NCBI GenBank assembly: GCA_951813395.1
Contig: OX638356.1
Coordinates: forward strand, 723,340 to 787,339
Origin: Longimicrobiales bacterium
GTDB taxonomy: Bacteria > Gemmatimonadota > Gemmatimonadetes > Longimicrobiales > Gaopeijiaceae
Direction: 5' to 3'
DNA: 64,000 nucleotides
The translations under genes were made by a program, and so were the position numbers. Below the pieces are notes generated by a model. It was not told where the DNA came from and made no database searches. It was given only the letters and a program-made list of their open reading frames with translations. Positions 31,697 to 61,100 of this stretch are shown piece after piece (within the stretch, counting starts at the first letter, position 1; the number at the start of each line of letters is the position of its first letter).

Positions 31697-31863
31697 GGCG
31701 CAAGTTTGCCTCCGACCTCATGGACCAGCCTCTCAAGGTCCTCTGCGAACTGGGAGGCTGGAGGACGGCCCAGACGGTGCTCCAGTGTTACCAGAGGCCC
31801 GACGAGGACCGGCTTAAGAAGGCGCTTAGTGAGCGGCGACGCGTCAGCTCCTCCCCAGATTAG
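31690..31863 (+). pseudogene. C-terminal remnant of a tyrosine recombinase/integrase
   Basis: In the frame containing the ATG at 31720, about 57 codons read SLRRKFASDLMD, then VLCELGGWRTAQTVLQCYQRPDEDRLKKAL and end at a TAG. This is the end of a phage-type integrase: the (H)xLRRKxA box, the GGW segment and the nucleophile Tyr in LQCYQRP. The His before LRR is lost at the junction with the lipoprotein array and everything N-terminal is absent, so it is inactive. It marks a recombination breakpoint at about 31683-31690 and replaces the normal end of copy 3. Confidence 0.75.
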
Positions 31864-31918
31864 CGGGAGTCAATCGGCGGGCCGAGCCGGGTTTGATCCG
31901 GCCGGTGCCTATTCCCGC
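31863..31918. terminator. Nested inverted repeats between the array and the toxin gene
   Basis: GCGGGA (31863-31868) can pair with TCCCGC (31913-31918), and inside it GCCGG-GTTTGAT-CCGGC (31886-31902) forms a second stem. It sits between two converging transcripts and may end either one; there is no clear U-run. Confidence 0.3.
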
Positions 31919-48419: not shown

Positions 48420-49241
48420 ATGCCCAGCTACACGGCCAGGGAGCTGGAGCGCGAGACGGGCGTCGACCGCAGAACCATCGCGTACTACGTGCAGGAGGGG
48501 CTTCTGCCCAGGGTCGGGCGTCGGGGCCGCCGGACCCGCTACCCGAAGCTGTTCCGCGACCGGCTGCTCTTCATCCAGCGAGTGAGAGAGGCCGAGGGGG
48601 AGGGCGAGGTGTCCGCCGTGACCCTGAACGACATCCGCAAGGTGTTCGAGCGCGTCCCGCCGGCGCTGATCGCGGGTGTCGCGGACCGCAAGATCGCAGT
48701 GACCCCGGACCTGGTGTCGGAGCCATCGACGGCTTTTCGCGCGCCGGAGATGAGGCAGGCGATCCTGAGGGAGAGATGGGTTGGGGAAGAGAGGGCGCTG
48801 TTTCCTGTGCGGGAGCCGGCATCACCCGCCGCCCCGCGTTTCTCGCCCGGCGCGCCTGCGGAAGACGAGGAGCCGTGCGAGGGGCCCCCGGAACCGGACG
48901 AGGGAGGCACGGTGGCGCGGGAGGAGGGGCCGGAGTCGTTCGTGCAGCGCGAGACGGACGTGCCGCCGGTGTACTCGCGGCTGCCGGAGCACGAGGAGGA
49001 CGCGGCCGAGCGTTACGGGAGCGGCACTGCGGAGGAAAAGGCCCTCGCCGGGGCTCTGCGGAGGCTCGAGGAGGTCGCGCGCCGCCGCAACGAGGAGTCG
49101 CCCCGATCGCGCAATACCTGGACGCGGATCGATGTCTCGCCGGACCTTGTGCTATCCGCGCGCGGCGTCGGAGAGGAAGACGCGGCCGTTGTGGAACGGG
49201 TGCGGCGGGCGATGCGGAGGGTGGTCAGGCGGGGGCGGTGA
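48420..49241 (+). CDS. MerR-family transcriptional regulator
   Basis: A 273-residue protein. The N-terminal winged helix is typical of MerR (SYTARELERETGVDRRTIAYYVQEGLLP, RTRYPKLFRDRLLFIQRV, LNDIRKVFE). The middle (about 115-190) is acidic and low-complexity; the C-terminal third is charged and helical, with no recognised effector domain. It probably binds the symmetrical site between its own promoter and that of the ARPP-1-like gene. The IS256 element has inserted 83 bases after its stop. Confidence 0.82.
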   Translation: MPSYTARELERETGVDRRTIAYYVQEGLLPRVGRRGRRTRYPKLFRDRLLFIQRVREAEGEGEVSAVTLNDIRKVFERVPPALIAGVADRKIAVTPDLVSEPSTAFRAPEMRQAILRERWVGEERALFPVREPASPAAPRFSPGAPAEDEEPCEGPPEPDEGGTVAREEGPESFVQRETDVPPVYSRLPEHEEDAAERYGSGTAEEKALAGALRRLEEVARRRNEESPRSRNTWTRIDVSPDLVLSARGVGEEDAAVVERVRRAMRRVVRRGR

Positions 49242-55049: not shown

Positions 55050-55549
55050 CGGGGGCCCGAAATGGTTGGCAGTGTGCGGATCATCGAATGATCAGGGTTC
55101 GGTGGACAAGGTTGTCCGGGGGAGCGGTCGAATGATGGGTGCGCTTCGTCGTCGAGGCAACCTGGATGGCAGGTGCCTAGTGGCTCACCGATCGGTCATT
55201 GGCCCAACGACTACCGTTGCTTCACCGCTGGAAACCACGGCTTCTGACTCATGCCACAAAGTGGCTGAGTGAGTGTAGCGACCCTCGATGGTTGCGATCG
55301 CAGCGTGCTGGAAGAGGATCAACGGGGGAGCTTGCGGATCCGTTTCCGTTTCGCCGACAGCGGCATCCACGAGGTTAGACTGTCAGCTATTTTTTACATT
55401 ATGTCAAGTAAAGTTGACTTTCCGTGCGCCTATCATACACGTTGTTGCATCATCTGAGTCCTTCCGTTATCGGTCCGTACCGGTCCGTTGGATGTAGGAT
55501 CTTGCGCGTTGGATGTCGGCGCTGTAATTTGGACGAAGGAAATGAAAGA
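55050..55549. other. 500-base gap with an AT-rich patch
   Basis: No coding region is supported. Around 55385-55440 the DNA becomes AT-rich (TTTTTTACATTATG) and holds GTCAA-N6-TTGAC, which could be a regulator site or promoter for the structured sequence at 55550-55707. Nothing else is clear. Confidence 0.35.
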
Positions 55550-55593
55550 CGGGTCAGATGCTCTCGGAAAGAGGATCTGGAGCATCCGACCCG
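55550..55593 (+). ncRNA. Strong hairpin, possibly part of a small RNA
   Basis: CGGGTC (55550-55555) and GATGCTC (55557-55563) pair with GAGCATC (55580-55586) and GACCCG (55588-55593), giving 13 pairs interrupted by one A-C mismatch around a 16-base loop. It lies 20 bases before the tRNA-like sequence and may be part of the same transcript. Confidence 0.35.
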
Positions 55594-55613
55594 CCCAACG
55601 GAAAGGCCGGAAA

Positions 55614-55707
55614 GGAGCAGACCCGAAGGCTGGGCCGATAACGGGGCTTTACATCCCTAGGGACAGCAGCTCATACCTGCTGCGGGGTTCGATTCCCCCC
55701 TGCTCCG
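55614..55707 (+). tRNA. tRNA-like sequence with aberrant cloverleaf
   Basis: GGAGCAG (55614-55620) pairs perfectly with CTGCTCC (55700-55706). A T-arm with loop TTCGATT (55688-55694) precedes it and discriminator G plus CC follow. CAGCAG/CTGCTG (55664-55682) makes a 6-bp hairpin with loop CTCATAC. If that is a long variable arm, G73 fits serine-type identity, but the remaining anticodon loop CTTTACA would show TTA, which reads the stop codon UAA. If it is the anticodon arm, the triplet is CAT, but the variable loop is missing and the D region is too long. It may be a decayed tRNA or an unusual one. Confidence 0.45.
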
Positions 55708-55813
55708 CCTTTCCTCAAGAAAGGTAACGCGACTTCCCGTATCATTGCAACGGGATGGAGTTGCCCCGCTATGACGGACACCTTTCCATTTGGGCCAACC
55801 AAGGAGGTGTGCC

Positions 55814-56131
55814 ATGGCGGGAAGAGGACGAGGGCGGTATCCGCCCGAGTACAAGGAGCAGATCGTCGAGCTTGTGAGATCCGGGCGTAGTCCGGGATCG
55901 CTCGCGCGGGAGTTCGAGCCCACGGAGCAGACGATCCGGAACTGGGTCAAGCAGGCGGACCTGGACGAGGGCCGCCGCAGCGACGGGCTGACGACCGAGG
56001 CGCGCCTCGAGCTGCTGCGTCTGAAGCGGGAAGTCAAGCGGCTGCGGATGGAGCGGGACATCCTAAAAAAAGCCGCGGCCTGGTTCGCGAGGGAGAGCGA
56101 CTCGATCCCCAGCGGGGGTACGCGTTCATGA
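55814..56131 (+). CDS. IS3-family OrfA (transposase helix-turn-helix subunit)
   Basis: A 105-residue protein from the ATG 55814 with an ideal AAGGAGGTG. It has the HTH_Tnp_1 pattern YPPEYKEQIVELVRSG and SLAREFEPTEQTIRNWVKQ, then the coiled LKREVKRLRMERDILKKAA. Its stop overlaps the OrfB ATG (ATGA). A run of seven A (56065-56071) inside ILKKA is a standard -1 slip site for OrfAB production. Confidence 0.93.
   Translation: MAGRGRGRYPPEYKEQIVELVRSGRSPGSLAREFEPTEQTIRNWVKQADLDEGRRSDGLTTEARLELLRLKREVKRLRMERDILKKAAAWFARESDSIPSGGTRS
56065..56071 (+). promoter_or_regulatory. -1 frameshift site (A7) in the IS3-family orfA
   Basis: The heptamer A AAA AAA is in phase with the OrfA codons AAA AAA, and OrfB lies in the -1 frame, as in classical IS3 elements. 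Confidence 0.65.
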
Positions 56132-56979
56132 AGGCGTACCGGGCCACGTTTCCGCTTGCGGCCATGTGCCGGGTGCTGGGTCTCTCCACCAGCGGGTACT
56201 ACGGCTGGCTGACGCGTCCTCCCTCGGCACGGACACGGCGCGACATCGAGCTTCAGGGCAAGATCCTGTTGATCTGGGGCGGCAGCGGGGAGACCTATGG
56301 CTGCCCTCGGATCCACGCGGAACTGCAAGCGGCGGGCGAGCGGGTGAGCCGGAAGCGCGTGGCACGCCTGATGAGGGATTTGGGCATTCAGGGCGTGACG
56401 CGGAGGCGCTTCAAGACGGCGACGACCAAGAAAGACGCGAAGGCCCGGCCTGCGCCGGACCTGGTGAACCGCAACTTTTCGGCCGACGGGCCCGACCAGC
56501 TGTGGGTCGCCGACATCACGCAGGTGAGCACTTGGTATGGCTGGCTGTACCTCGCGGTCGTGCTCGATGCCTGGAGCCGCCGCATCGTCGGCTGGGCGAT
56601 GTCGCCGCACATGCGGGCCGAACTGGTGGAGGGTGCGCTGGCGATGGCGATCTCGAACCGGAAACCCAAGGGGCGGGTGGTGCATCACTCGGATCAAGGC
56701 TCGCAGTATACGTCGCTGGCCTTCGGGAAGCGCTGCCGCGAGGCCGGCGTGGTGCAGTCGATGGGCTCGGTGGGCGACGCCTACGATAACGCGATGTGCG
56801 AGAGCTTCTTCGCCACGCTGGAGTGCGAGCTCCTCGACCGAAGTCGCTTTCCGACACCCGCCGACGCGCGGCGTGAAGTCTTCGGCTTCATCGAGGGCTT
56901 CTACAACACCCGCAGGATCCATTCGGCGCTCGGCTACAAGTCGCCGACGAACTTCGAGAGACTCAACCATGCGGCCTGA
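56128..56979 (+). CDS. IS3-family OrfB (DDE transposase)
   Basis: A 283-residue protein. The HTH_21-like start CRVLGLSTSGYYGWLTRPPS precedes YGCPRIHAEL. The catalytic Asp, Asp and Glu lie in LWVADITQV, VHHSDQGSQYTS and DAYDNAMCESFFATLECE. It ends with the usual FYNTRRIHSALGYKSPTNFE. It is intact and catalytically complete by eye. Confidence 0.94.
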   Translation: MKAYRATFPLAAMCRVLGLSTSGYYGWLTRPPSARTRRDIELQGKILLIWGGSGETYGCPRIHAELQAAGERVSRKRVARLMRDLGIQGVTRRRFKTATTKKDAKARPAPDLVNRNFSADGPDQLWVADITQVSTWYGWLYLAVVLDAWSRRIVGWAMSPHMRAELVEGALAMAISNRKPKGRVVHHSDQGSQYTSLAFGKRCREAGVVQSMGSVGDAYDNAMCESFFATLECELLDRSRFPTPADARREVFGFIEGFYNTRRIHSALGYKSPTNFERLNHAA

Positions 56980-57165
56980 AGCGAAGGTGCAGCGCCGGGG
57001 CGACCGAAGCGCTCCGGACTTCTCCTGGCTGTTCGCCTCGTCCGCGATGTACCTTGCCTCTCTCCGTGAAATGACGAGGGAGAAAAGAAACCACATCAGA
57101 CACCATCAACCCCAGAAACCAACCGTCCGTGAAAGCGGGGTAGGTCCAGGATAGGAGGTAAGGCG

Positions 57166-57919: not shown

Positions 57920-58146
57920 GAACGGTGGCCAGACCGGCCTTGCCGGGGCCCGTCCGGCACCACCACGAACCGCTCGCCCTTGATCTCGTGGAACACGAGC
58001 CCCCAGGTGTCCTTCTCCAGCTGCGCCAGCGTCCGCCGGGCGTCCTCGATGTCCCGGCCCAGTCCGGTGACCGTCTCGATCCGAGTCTGATGCTCCTCGA
58101 CAACCACCGCATCGTCGCCCAGCTTCCGCCGAAGCAACCGATCCAA
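57920..58146 (-). pseudogene. Unrecognised coding remnant downstream of the M14 gene
   Basis: From a TTG at 58146, 4 bases after the M14 stop and without a ribosome site, the frame reads LGDDAVVVEEHQTRIETVTG, then RRTLAQLEKDTWGLVFHEIKG and RFVVVPDG. Its composition looks like true coding sequence, but after about 57950 the frame turns into unrelated, AT-richer sequence of the accessory patch. It is probably a gene cut by the rearrangement. I do not recognise the family. Confidence 0.35.
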
Positions 58147-58150
58147 AGGC

Positions 58151-61100
58151 TCAGGCCGGCGGCCGCTCCCGATTCATCCTCAGCGTCACGCCGCCCCGGA
58201 ACCGCGATCCGCTCCGCTCCACCTCGTGGTTGCCGTCGTACAGGTAGTCCAGGATCGCCTGGTCCCATGACAGTCCCGCCTTCGCCACCAGCTCCATCCA
58301 GGGGCCGTAGGCGGTCTCGTCGGGGGCCTCGGTGGTGCCGCTCCAGATCGTGATCCGGGGGTTGAAGCCGCCGCCGCCCCCTCCGCGCGAACCTTTCAGC
58401 GGCATCTCGATCAGCACGCTGTCGGTCATCGGCAGGCGGAAGACCTCCGGGTCGAAGTCGGCCCCGTAGCGGCGGTAGCGGTCGTAGGTGCGCTGGTTCA
58501 TGTCGAAGACGTCGCGGTTGGAATTGATGCCCGCCGTGATGTAGTCCCGGATCCTGAACGCGGCGTCCTTGTGGCGCGGGAACTCGGGGTCGTCGATGTA
58601 CCCGAAACCCGGCATGAACCAGCCCTTGTTGAATCCCCAGTTGCGCTCCGTCACGCGGCCGCGGCGCACCAGGCCGGTGTATTCCGAGAACAGCTGCACG
58701 ACCTGGTGGCTCGGATAGCCGTGCGGATTGAGAAAGATGTCGGGCAGCCAGCGTTCCCAGAGCTGGCCGCGGACCTTCGACTCGGGGTAAATGGGCAAGT
58801 CCTGGCTGCCGCCAGACGTGGCGTCCATGCCCAGCGACGCGAGATACCCCGCGTGGAGGATGTAGTCGGGCGTGATCCGGTACAGGTCGTAGGCGAGCTG
58901 GGCGCCGTCGGGATTGGTGAAGGGGTGGATGACGACGTTGACCCTGTCCAGCCTGGCACGCTGCTCCGGATCGGTGAGCAGCAGTTCGGCGTGACGGAGG
59001 ACGTGGCTTGTGGACGAGACCTCGTTGGCGTGTTGCCGGGCCGAATAGATCACGGTCGGCTTGAACGTGGTGGCCTTGGCGCGCGACCAGTGGGTGGCGT
59101 TGATCGGCGGCATCAGGTCCATCGCCCAGGTGGTCCTCCCCAGGTAGCTCTCGCCGACCCTGTACATGGTGGCCTCGTCGAAGGCGTGGCTCAACTTGGC
59201 CGCCATCTCGTGGCCCTCGGGCGGGGGGATGGGGGTGTCCCACTGGACGATGCGCTCGCCGTCGTAGCTCCAGCCTTCCGGGACGAGGTCGGTCCACACC
59301 GGCAGCGGGGCAGGGGAGCCGTTTGCCGGCAGGGTCGCGGTGACGCGCGCCGTGTCGTTCTGTTCGTGCGTCCACTCGGCCCACACCCCGATTTCGCCGA
59401 CATCGTCCCAGGCGAGGGCGTCGGCGTATGGCCCGGCGTCGCGGAGGGCGCCCAGGTTGGCGAGCGTGGCCGCGACCTGCTCGGCCGAGATCATGCGGGC
59501 GTCGACCTGCTCCGGTCTGGCCTGAACGAGCAGTGCTTCGCGCTCGTCCGCCTCCGAGTCCACGCGCACCCGGAGGTCGAGCCGGGGAAGGGCCGGGGCG
59601 CTTGCCGCGATCACCGCGCGCCGCAGACTCGGGCGCTCCATCGTGACCTTCGGAATGTCGAGCCGCTCTTCGCCCTCGCGCCCGTCCCGCGTCTCGTAGC
59701 GCACCACCACGGCCGGCCGATCCGTCGCGAACCCGGTGAGGCTGACGCGGCCGCGTCCCGCCGCGCCGTCGCCCTTCGGACGCATGACGGGGATGATGCG
59801 TCCCGGATACGTCAAGTCCTGCCCGCGCGCGTTGCGGCCGATCAGGTGGAAGAACTCGATTGTGCCGAAGTAGATCTCCTCGTGCAGCGCGTCCATCGTC
59901 GAGATGATCTCGTTGTCGACGCCCAGGCGGTAGTCGGGCTCGCTGAGCTCCAGTTCGACCTCCAGCGTGCCGAAGAAGGGGGCGTCCGCGCCGCCGCCGC
60001 GCGGGTTCCCGTCGTGGCGGTCCATCACGTAGTCGTAGACCGCGGGCAGCGTGCGTTCCTGGTAGCGATCCCAGATCCACTCCGGGTCGGTGACGATGCG
60101 TCCGTGCGCGAGCGTGTCCCCTTCGGCTATTGCGGTGACCCAGCCGGTCGTGACGCGAACGTGTTCGTAGTCCTGGAAACGGTCGAAGTAGGGACGCAGC
60201 ACCCAGACCGGATCGAACGTGTCCTCGACGATGGTGCTCCCGTCCGGCGCTGTGGCCCGGACCCGGTAGATGGGCCCGGCGTCCACCATTTCGAAGCGAA
60301 TGCGGTCGACGGGCAGCCCCGGATCTTGAGCCAGGACCTCGTCGATGGGGAAGATCTCGTGCAGCCACCTCAGCGGCGTGTGAATGGCCTGCTGCGGCCA
60401 GTCGACGGGCGGGTCGTTCCTGAGAAACTCGATCACGATCTCGCCGATCTCCTGCCCGGCGAGGCGGGGAGCGATCCGCTCGGTCAGCCAGAAGAAGCCC
60501 TGCTTGAAGGCGGACAGCACCTCGACCTCGGTGGCGTCGGGGTCGGCGCCGGCCGCGACCAGGCGCCGCCGGGCCTCCTCCTCGATCGCCCGGCGGACGT
60601 CGGGGGGCTCGGAGAGGCGCGCGTGGAGCCGGACGGTCTGCGTCGGAGCCACCCCGGGCAGCACCTGGTCCTCGAAGACCGTCCAGAAACGGTCCACCTC
60701 CGACGGCACCGTGAAGGTCTCGTCGAAGATGGTGTCGGCGTGCTGCACGTCGCGGTCGTCGATCGTGACGGAGATGTCGTCGGCGCCCAGCGCGGCGACC
60801 CTCGCGCGCACGAGATCGGCGAGCCCGGCGGCGGGCTTCTCGAGTGATATCAGGATGTCCGCCGTCGCGACATCATCGTCCGCGAGCCCCGCGACAATCC
60901 GGTCGAGCTTGTAGAGCCCGATCGCGGCCTGGCCGGCGGGAGTGCGACCCGAAAGCGTGCCCCAGAGCTCGTACTCGATGTCGTCGAGGGTCGGGGTGTC
61001 GTCGCCCCGGACGCTGACGTTGGGGAAGACCTCGGCGAGGCGGCTGGTCGCGAGCGTCGCGCCGTCGTGGTCCGCGCCGGTAACGACCAGGGCGGACTTG

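What the first reader, a model, noticed from the sequence alone, without database searches (positions are those of the whole stretch)
55614..55707. Serine-type-looking tRNA with a stop-reading or Met-like triplet
The perfect acceptor stem, T-arm, G73 and a 6-bp extra hairpin point to a tRNA, yet the middle does not form a standard cloverleaf. One reading gives anticodon TTA (UAA suppressor, reminiscent of allo-tRNAs); another gives CAT without a variable loop.
Basis: partly seen in the sequence, partly recalled or inferred. Interest (0 to 1): 0.56.

Follow-up and report, generated by a model that had tools for sequence, protein, structure and literature searches.

The report
Degenerate serine-tRNA-like relic in island
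A short stretch keeps the two outer arms and the extra hairpin of a serine transfer RNA but has no working centre, has no detectable relative in the other genomes searched, and sits in mobile-DNA debris, so it is most likely a dead tRNA-like remnant rather than a stop-codon-reading tRNA.

Summary
The sequence is there as described, apart from one mismatch: acceptor stem 7/7 pairs (GGAGCAG/CTGCTCC), T-arm 4 of 5 pairs with a canonical TTCGATT loop, G73, and a 6-bp extra hairpin. It resembles a type II tRNA more than chance allows. An acceptor-independent type II tRNA covariance model scores it 25.2 bits, top in the window and the best unexplained hit reported in its genome (E 0.018 genome-wide), while real host tRNAs score 38-94. 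The same acceptor stem is ordinary in tRNA-Ser of other bacteria. The centre fails: no standard cloverleaf exists under tRNA spacing rules, whereas 5 of 5 host type II tRNAs tested pass. ARAGORN (default) and Rfam (gathering) find nothing. The UUA reading needs an 8-nt D-anticodon linker and a 4-bp anticodon stem with a G·U. The allo-tRNA 8/4 or 9/3 geometry is not met. It is single-copy, absent from 22 congeners, and lies in an 8.9-kb variable insert full of IS elements, 48 bp from a recent IS3-family insertion. Best reading: a degenerate tRNA-Ser-like relic carried or stranded by mobile DNA. Expression, charging and stop-codon reading are untested. Interest low.

The parts
55614..55620 (+). 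acceptor stem 5' strand GGAGCAG
   Evidence: pairs 7/7 with 55700-55706
55622..55634 (+). D-like hairpin CCCG-AAGGC-TGGG (3 G-C pairs plus a G·U), only with relaxed spacing
   Evidence: not found under strict rules; relaxed rules
55643..55657 (+). possible 4-bp anticodon-like arm GGGG-CTTTACA-TCCC, loop triplet TTA after T33; weak
   Evidence: the covariance models do not align a well-paired 5-bp anticodon arm here
55664..55682 (+). extra (variable-arm-like) hairpin CAGCAG-CTCATAC-CTGCTG
   Evidence: as strong a hairpin next to the T-stem in 24 of 2000 shuffles
55683..55699 (+). T-arm C-GGGG-TTCGATT-CCCC-C; 4 pairs plus C·C mismatch
   Evidence: T-loop segment matches the tmRNA model
55700..55707 (+). 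acceptor stem 3' strand CTGCTCC and discriminator G73 (no encoded CCA)
55600..55607 (+). GGAAAGGC, can extend the acceptor stem by pairing with 55708-55715 GCCTTTCC
55756..57148 (+). IS3-family insertion sequence (orfA 55790-56131, orfB 56128-56979); 4 further copies at 100% identity in the same genome
54705..55049 (-). truncated N-terminal piece of a helicase gene (1121 aa in a congener)
57949..58161 (.). fragment of the relaxase region of an integrative mobilizable element family

Best explanation
A degenerate tRNA-Ser-like sequence (tRNA pseudogene or tRNA-derived relic) in a mobile-DNA insert. Shown: it keeps the acceptor stem, G73, most of the T-arm and an extra hairpin, and lacks a foldable D/anticodon core; it is unique in its genome, absent from the relatives searched, and surrounded by IS and element debris. 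Inferred: it arrived as, or decayed from, a serine-type tRNA gene on mobile DNA, and it is not used as a translating tRNA. If transcribed, the stem could still be trimmed by tRNA-processing enzymes, but no step of translation is expected.
For: R2 25.2 bits, best in the window and best unexplained hit reported in the genome. Every genuine host tRNA that R2 reported in the control loci scored at least 38 bits. Acceptor used by ordinary tRNA-Ser (44 of 46). No strict cloverleaf. Single copy. No convincing match in 59 genomes of genus/family/order, 295 genomes of the class (2 short matches at E <= 0.005 that ARAGORN does not call tRNA), 395 of the phylum by pattern (own genome only), plasmids or phages (T-arm-sized matches only). 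Island context: MerR-like gene and M14 gene are 1.1 kb apart in congener G003 but 8.9 kb apart here. IS 48 bp away, with 4 other copies at 100% identity. Truncated helicase. Ordinary tRNA-Ser genes with four anticodons (GCT, CGA, GGA, TGA) are present elsewhere. No promoter-like site was found just upstream.
Against: No source tRNA gene or intermediate was found, so descent is inferred from resemblance only. The acceptor differs from those of the host tRNA-Ser, so a donor must be foreign. Relaxed-spacing arms (D-like plus anticodon-like with T33) are reached in only 17 of 3000 shuffles, slightly more order than random decay would leave, although those limits were chosen after seeing the sequence. 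Whole-element fold z = -2.6.
Confidence: 0.6

Rival explanations
1. Chance: a GC-rich palindrome cluster that happens to carry a T-arm-like hairpin and a matching 7-mer.
For: T-arm motifs alone are common (3 on + and 2 on - in the window; 116 in 120 Markov windows). Acceptor plus T-arm arises about once in 120 such windows. Neighbouring unrelated hairpins occur at 55549-55594 and 55735-55757.
Against: R2 E 2.9e-4 in the window and 0.018 genome-wide. In four congeners the only R2 hits between 21 and 36 bits are one probable tmRNA (27.9, judged by position) and one irregular tRNA (26.1).
Confidence: 0.2
2. A functional irregular tRNA-like RNA of the allo-tRNA sort (serine identity, UUA anticodon, five-way-junction type) travelling with mobile DNA.
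For: G73, extra arm and transposon-rich setting resemble the irregular allo-tRNA-like genes described in PMC7609411 section 7, which also mentions ochre-reading 9/3 forms. Relaxed arms with T33 reached in 17 of 3000 shuffles.
Against: 8/4 and 9/3 geometry not met (A8·C65, C49·C65). 8-nt and 6-nt linkers and a 4-bp anticodon stem with G·U. No relatives. No promoter-like site just upstream.
Confidence: 0.12
3. Attachment-site scar: the 3' part of a tRNA gene left by a tRNA-targeting integrative element.
For: A relaxase-region fragment of such an element family lies 2.2 kb away. In 6 of 17 examined copies of that fragment a tRNA-Pro(TGG) or tRNA-Arg(CCT) gene lies about 1.7 kb away, and a Phage_integrase gene lies between the two in the copy tested with Pfam. 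The Clostridia locus L169 shows a tRNA-Ser 3' end inside element-like DNA.
Against: A scar need not carry a matching 5' acceptor strand, which is present here. No integrase gene was found next to the element among the neighbours tested. A profile of that family's att flank finds nothing at 55500-55900, although it does hit at 31881-31844.
Confidence: 0.08

Closest known systems
bacterial tRNA-Ser (type II)
   Same: acceptor GGAGCAG/CTGCTCC, G73, T-loop, extra arm with a 7-nt loop as in some tRNA-Ser
   Different: no D/anticodon core under tRNA spacing; T-stem mismatch; 25 bits against 72-94 for host tRNA-Ser
allo-tRNA and irregular allo-tRNA-like genes (review PMC7609411, section 7, read)
   Same: serine-type G73, extra arm, mobile-DNA neighbourhood, destabilised core
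   Different: acceptor branch is 7 + mismatch + 4, neither 8/4 nor 9/3; no related copies found
tRNA-Sec (RF01852)
   Same: type II tRNA with G73
   Different: not reported for the element at E up to 10, where only the best hit per clan is printed; the genome has its own tRNA-Sec at 2480346
tmRNA (RF00023)
   Same: 15-nt T-arm segment, 13.3 bits
   Different: no tag region or tmRNA core; the genome has a full tmRNA at 2510622

Membership tests
functional tRNA (type II) | 7-bp acceptor stem | tested here: met
   7/7 pairs
functional tRNA (type II) | 5-bp T-stem with T-loop consensus | tested here: inconclusive
   loop met, stem 4 of 5 (C49·C65)
functional tRNA (type II) | D-arm, 5-bp anticodon arm with 7-nt loop and normal linkers | tested here: not met
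   no solution; 5 of 5 host type II tRNAs pass
functional tRNA (type II) | score in the range of real tRNAs | tested here: not met
   25.2 bits; genuine tRNAs in the control set 38-94; ARAGORN default 0
functional tRNA (type II) | transcribed, processed and charged | not testable with these tools
   no RNA data
tRNA-Ser identity | G73 and long extra arm | tested here: met
   6-bp arm
allo-tRNA | 12-bp acceptor branch as 8/4 or 9/3 | tested here: not met
   position 8 A opposite C65, position 9 C opposite C64
allo-tRNA | sequence relatives among known allo-tRNAs | not tested
   no allo-tRNA sequences at hand; original paper not held
tmRNA | match to the tmRNA model over its length | tested here: not met
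   T-arm only, 15 of 374 positions

The most novel reading that the evidence does not exclude
A mobile-element-borne serine-type tRNA with a UUA anticodon and a distorted core (extended D-anticodon linker, 4-bp anticodon stem) that inserts serine at UAA or acts as a decoy RNA for the element.
Probability: 0.05. Interest if true: 0.7.

Novelty: new member of a known kind. Interest (0 to 1): 0.17.

Why it matters
If it is a relic, it is one more example of tRNA-derived debris in a bacterial integration hot spot and a warning that lowered-threshold tRNA callers yield suppressor-looking hits in GC-rich DNA. If it were functional, it would be an irregular ochre-reading tRNA outside the known geometries, which would bear on how far the cloverleaf can be distorted.

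Tried and rejected
tmRNA or permuted tmRNA fragment: only the T-arm matches, and the genome has a full tmRNA. Part of the adjacent IS: rejected, because IS copies elsewhere begin at window 55756. Phage or plasmid tRNA: no full match; one 20-mer in a viral contig (L256) has no further similarity. Attachment site of the integrative mobilizable element family: the profile of its att flank gave no hit at the element. A tRNA-Ser(cga) call at the same chromosomal slot in congener G013 (L240) lies inside a 379-aa ORF with no Pfam match, and R2 does not support it, so it was dropped. ARAGORN with introns or lowered thresholds: many false calls. R1 (33.8 bits) is not used as evidence, because its sequences were chosen by the element's own acceptor; R2 was built instead. 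One row of A2 (L110) is shifted by one base and was left in. In one search the script kept loci L106-L189 only, so 38 of the 118 genome stretches were not counted. One search used a wrong gap for the tRNA-His pattern and was redone. Papers: PMC7609411 (passages; section 7), PMC7590224 (term search, no hits); others seen only as search listings.

Full report
Observation. At 55614-55707 (+) the sequence has a perfect 7-bp acceptor stem, G73, a canonical T-loop on a 4-of-5-pair stem, and a 6-bp hairpin just 5' of the T-arm. ARAGORN at default finds no tRNA or tmRNA in the window, and no Rfam family reaches its gathering score. The best weak Rfam hit by E-value is 15 nt of the tmRNA T-arm at 13.3 bits. 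The 94-nt stretch folds better than most shuffles (z -2.6, 3 of 200 as good), and its acceptor stem can be extended by GGAAAGGC/GCCTTTCC.

More than chance? In first-order Markov sequence a T-arm with a matching 7-bp acceptor at tRNA distance appeared once in 120 windows. Of 46 distinct sequences taken from 84 of these 122, 44 are called tRNA-Ser, 1 tRNA-Phe and 1 nothing. The one not called, L169, is a tRNA-Ser 3' end in DNA that encodes ParA/ParB/RadC-like proteins (names from reading the translations, not from a family search). A first covariance model, R1, scored the element 33.8 bits but is circular, because most of its members share the acceptor by selection. Model R2, from 44 Ser, Leu and Tyr tRNAs with other acceptors, gives 25.2 bits, E 2.9e-4 in the window, next best 16.3. 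In the same setting genuine host tRNAs score 38-94, the tmRNA tRNA-like domain 21.8 and L169 15.4. Over the whole genome the element is the best unexplained hit (E 0.018, 150 of 2666 candidates scored). In four congeners the hits between 21 and 36 bits are one at 27.9, which by position is probably the tmRNA, and one at 26.1, an irregular tRNA-like gene with a four-base anticodon. So it is a tRNA-like sequence, at moderate statistical strength.

Is it a tRNA? An enumeration of cloverleaves with tRNA spacing finds none for the element, with or without T33, while 5 of 5 host type II tRNAs tested give scores of 11.5-12.5. The extra hairpin is matched by 24 of 2000 shuffles. If linkers are relaxed to 9 and 6 nt (limits chosen after seeing the sequence), a D-like arm and a 4-bp arm with loop CTTTACA appear; 17 of 3000 shuffles do as well. 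ARAGORN prints tRNA-Stop(tta) only at thresholds of 80% or less, where the window gives 157 to 814 calls. The CAU reading leaves about 44 nt between acceptor and anticodon stem and no variable loop. A serine-charged ochre-reading tRNA or a Met-type tRNA is therefore not supported.

Surroundings. The window lies at 723340-787339 of a 4.09-Mb single-contig genome. In congener G003 the MerR-like gene (ending at 49241 here; name read from its translation) and the M14 peptidase gene (from 58157) are 1.1 kb apart; here 8.9 kb separates them. The insert holds a mutator-family transposase, two IS3-like elements, a six-bladed propeller gene, a truncated N-terminus of a helicase that is 1121 aa in G011, and a relaxase-region fragment at 57949-58161. 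The IS next to the element runs 55756-57148, with 4 more copies at 100% identity in the genome, so it is recent and does not contain the element. The relaxase fragment belongs to an element family with Phage_integrase and Relaxase genes (tested in one copy, L268). In 6 of 17 copies examined a tRNA-Pro or tRNA-Arg gene lies about 1.7 kb away. An att-flank profile of that family does not match at the element, so a direct link is not shown.

Distribution. One copy in the genome. Apart from T-arm or other short matches, nothing in 59 relatives. Among 295 class genomes at E <= 0.005 there are the own copy and 2 short matches, neither called a tRNA. Among 395 phylum genomes by pattern, only the own genome. 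Nothing in plasmids and only T-arm-sized matches in phages.

Known kinds. The nearest description in print that I saw is the allo-tRNA section of PMC7609411: serine-type tRNAs with 8/4 or 9/3 acceptor branches, some with ochre anticodons, plus irregular five-stem forms and a pseudogene overlapping a transposon-related gene in Edaphobacter. The element shares the style but fails the geometry (A8·C65). I therefore file it as a degenerate tRNA-Ser-like relic, with chance, a functional irregular tRNA-like RNA, and an attachment scar as rivals in that order.

Noticed in passing
host genome C1:2461890-2461976 (-), locus L072:190-278: A second tRNA-Sec-like gene (RF01852 44.7 bits, just under the cut-off of 47; ARAGORN reads a two-base anticodon), besides a canonical tRNA-Sec at 2480346 (79.7 bits). 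No 87-nt equivalent appears among the R2 hits of four congeners.
   Followed up: partly
host genome, tRNA set: No tRNA-His(GTG) among the 47 RF00005 matches over the cut-off as typed by ARAGORN, and a pattern for its anticodon and T-arm gave no convincing hit. It may be masked or divergent.
   Followed up: partly
G005 C51:163194-163267 (L019:1451-1525): Irregular tRNA-like gene with a four-base anticodon in a congener; its acceptor looks tRNA-Ala-like to my eye.
   Followed up: no
window 57949-58161 and L264-L280: Fragment of an integrative mobilizable element family (Phage_integrase plus Relaxase); 6 of 17 copies lie about 1.7 kb from tRNA-Pro(TGG) or tRNA-Arg(CCT).
   Followed up: partly
window 31844-31881 (-): Match to the att-flank/integrase-end profile of that element family (18.6 bits, E 5.8e-5), suggesting another copy or remnant in the window.
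   Followed up: no
window 55549-55594: Strong hairpin CGGGTCAGATGCTC...GAGCATCCGACCCG just upstream of the tRNA-like element.
   Followed up: no
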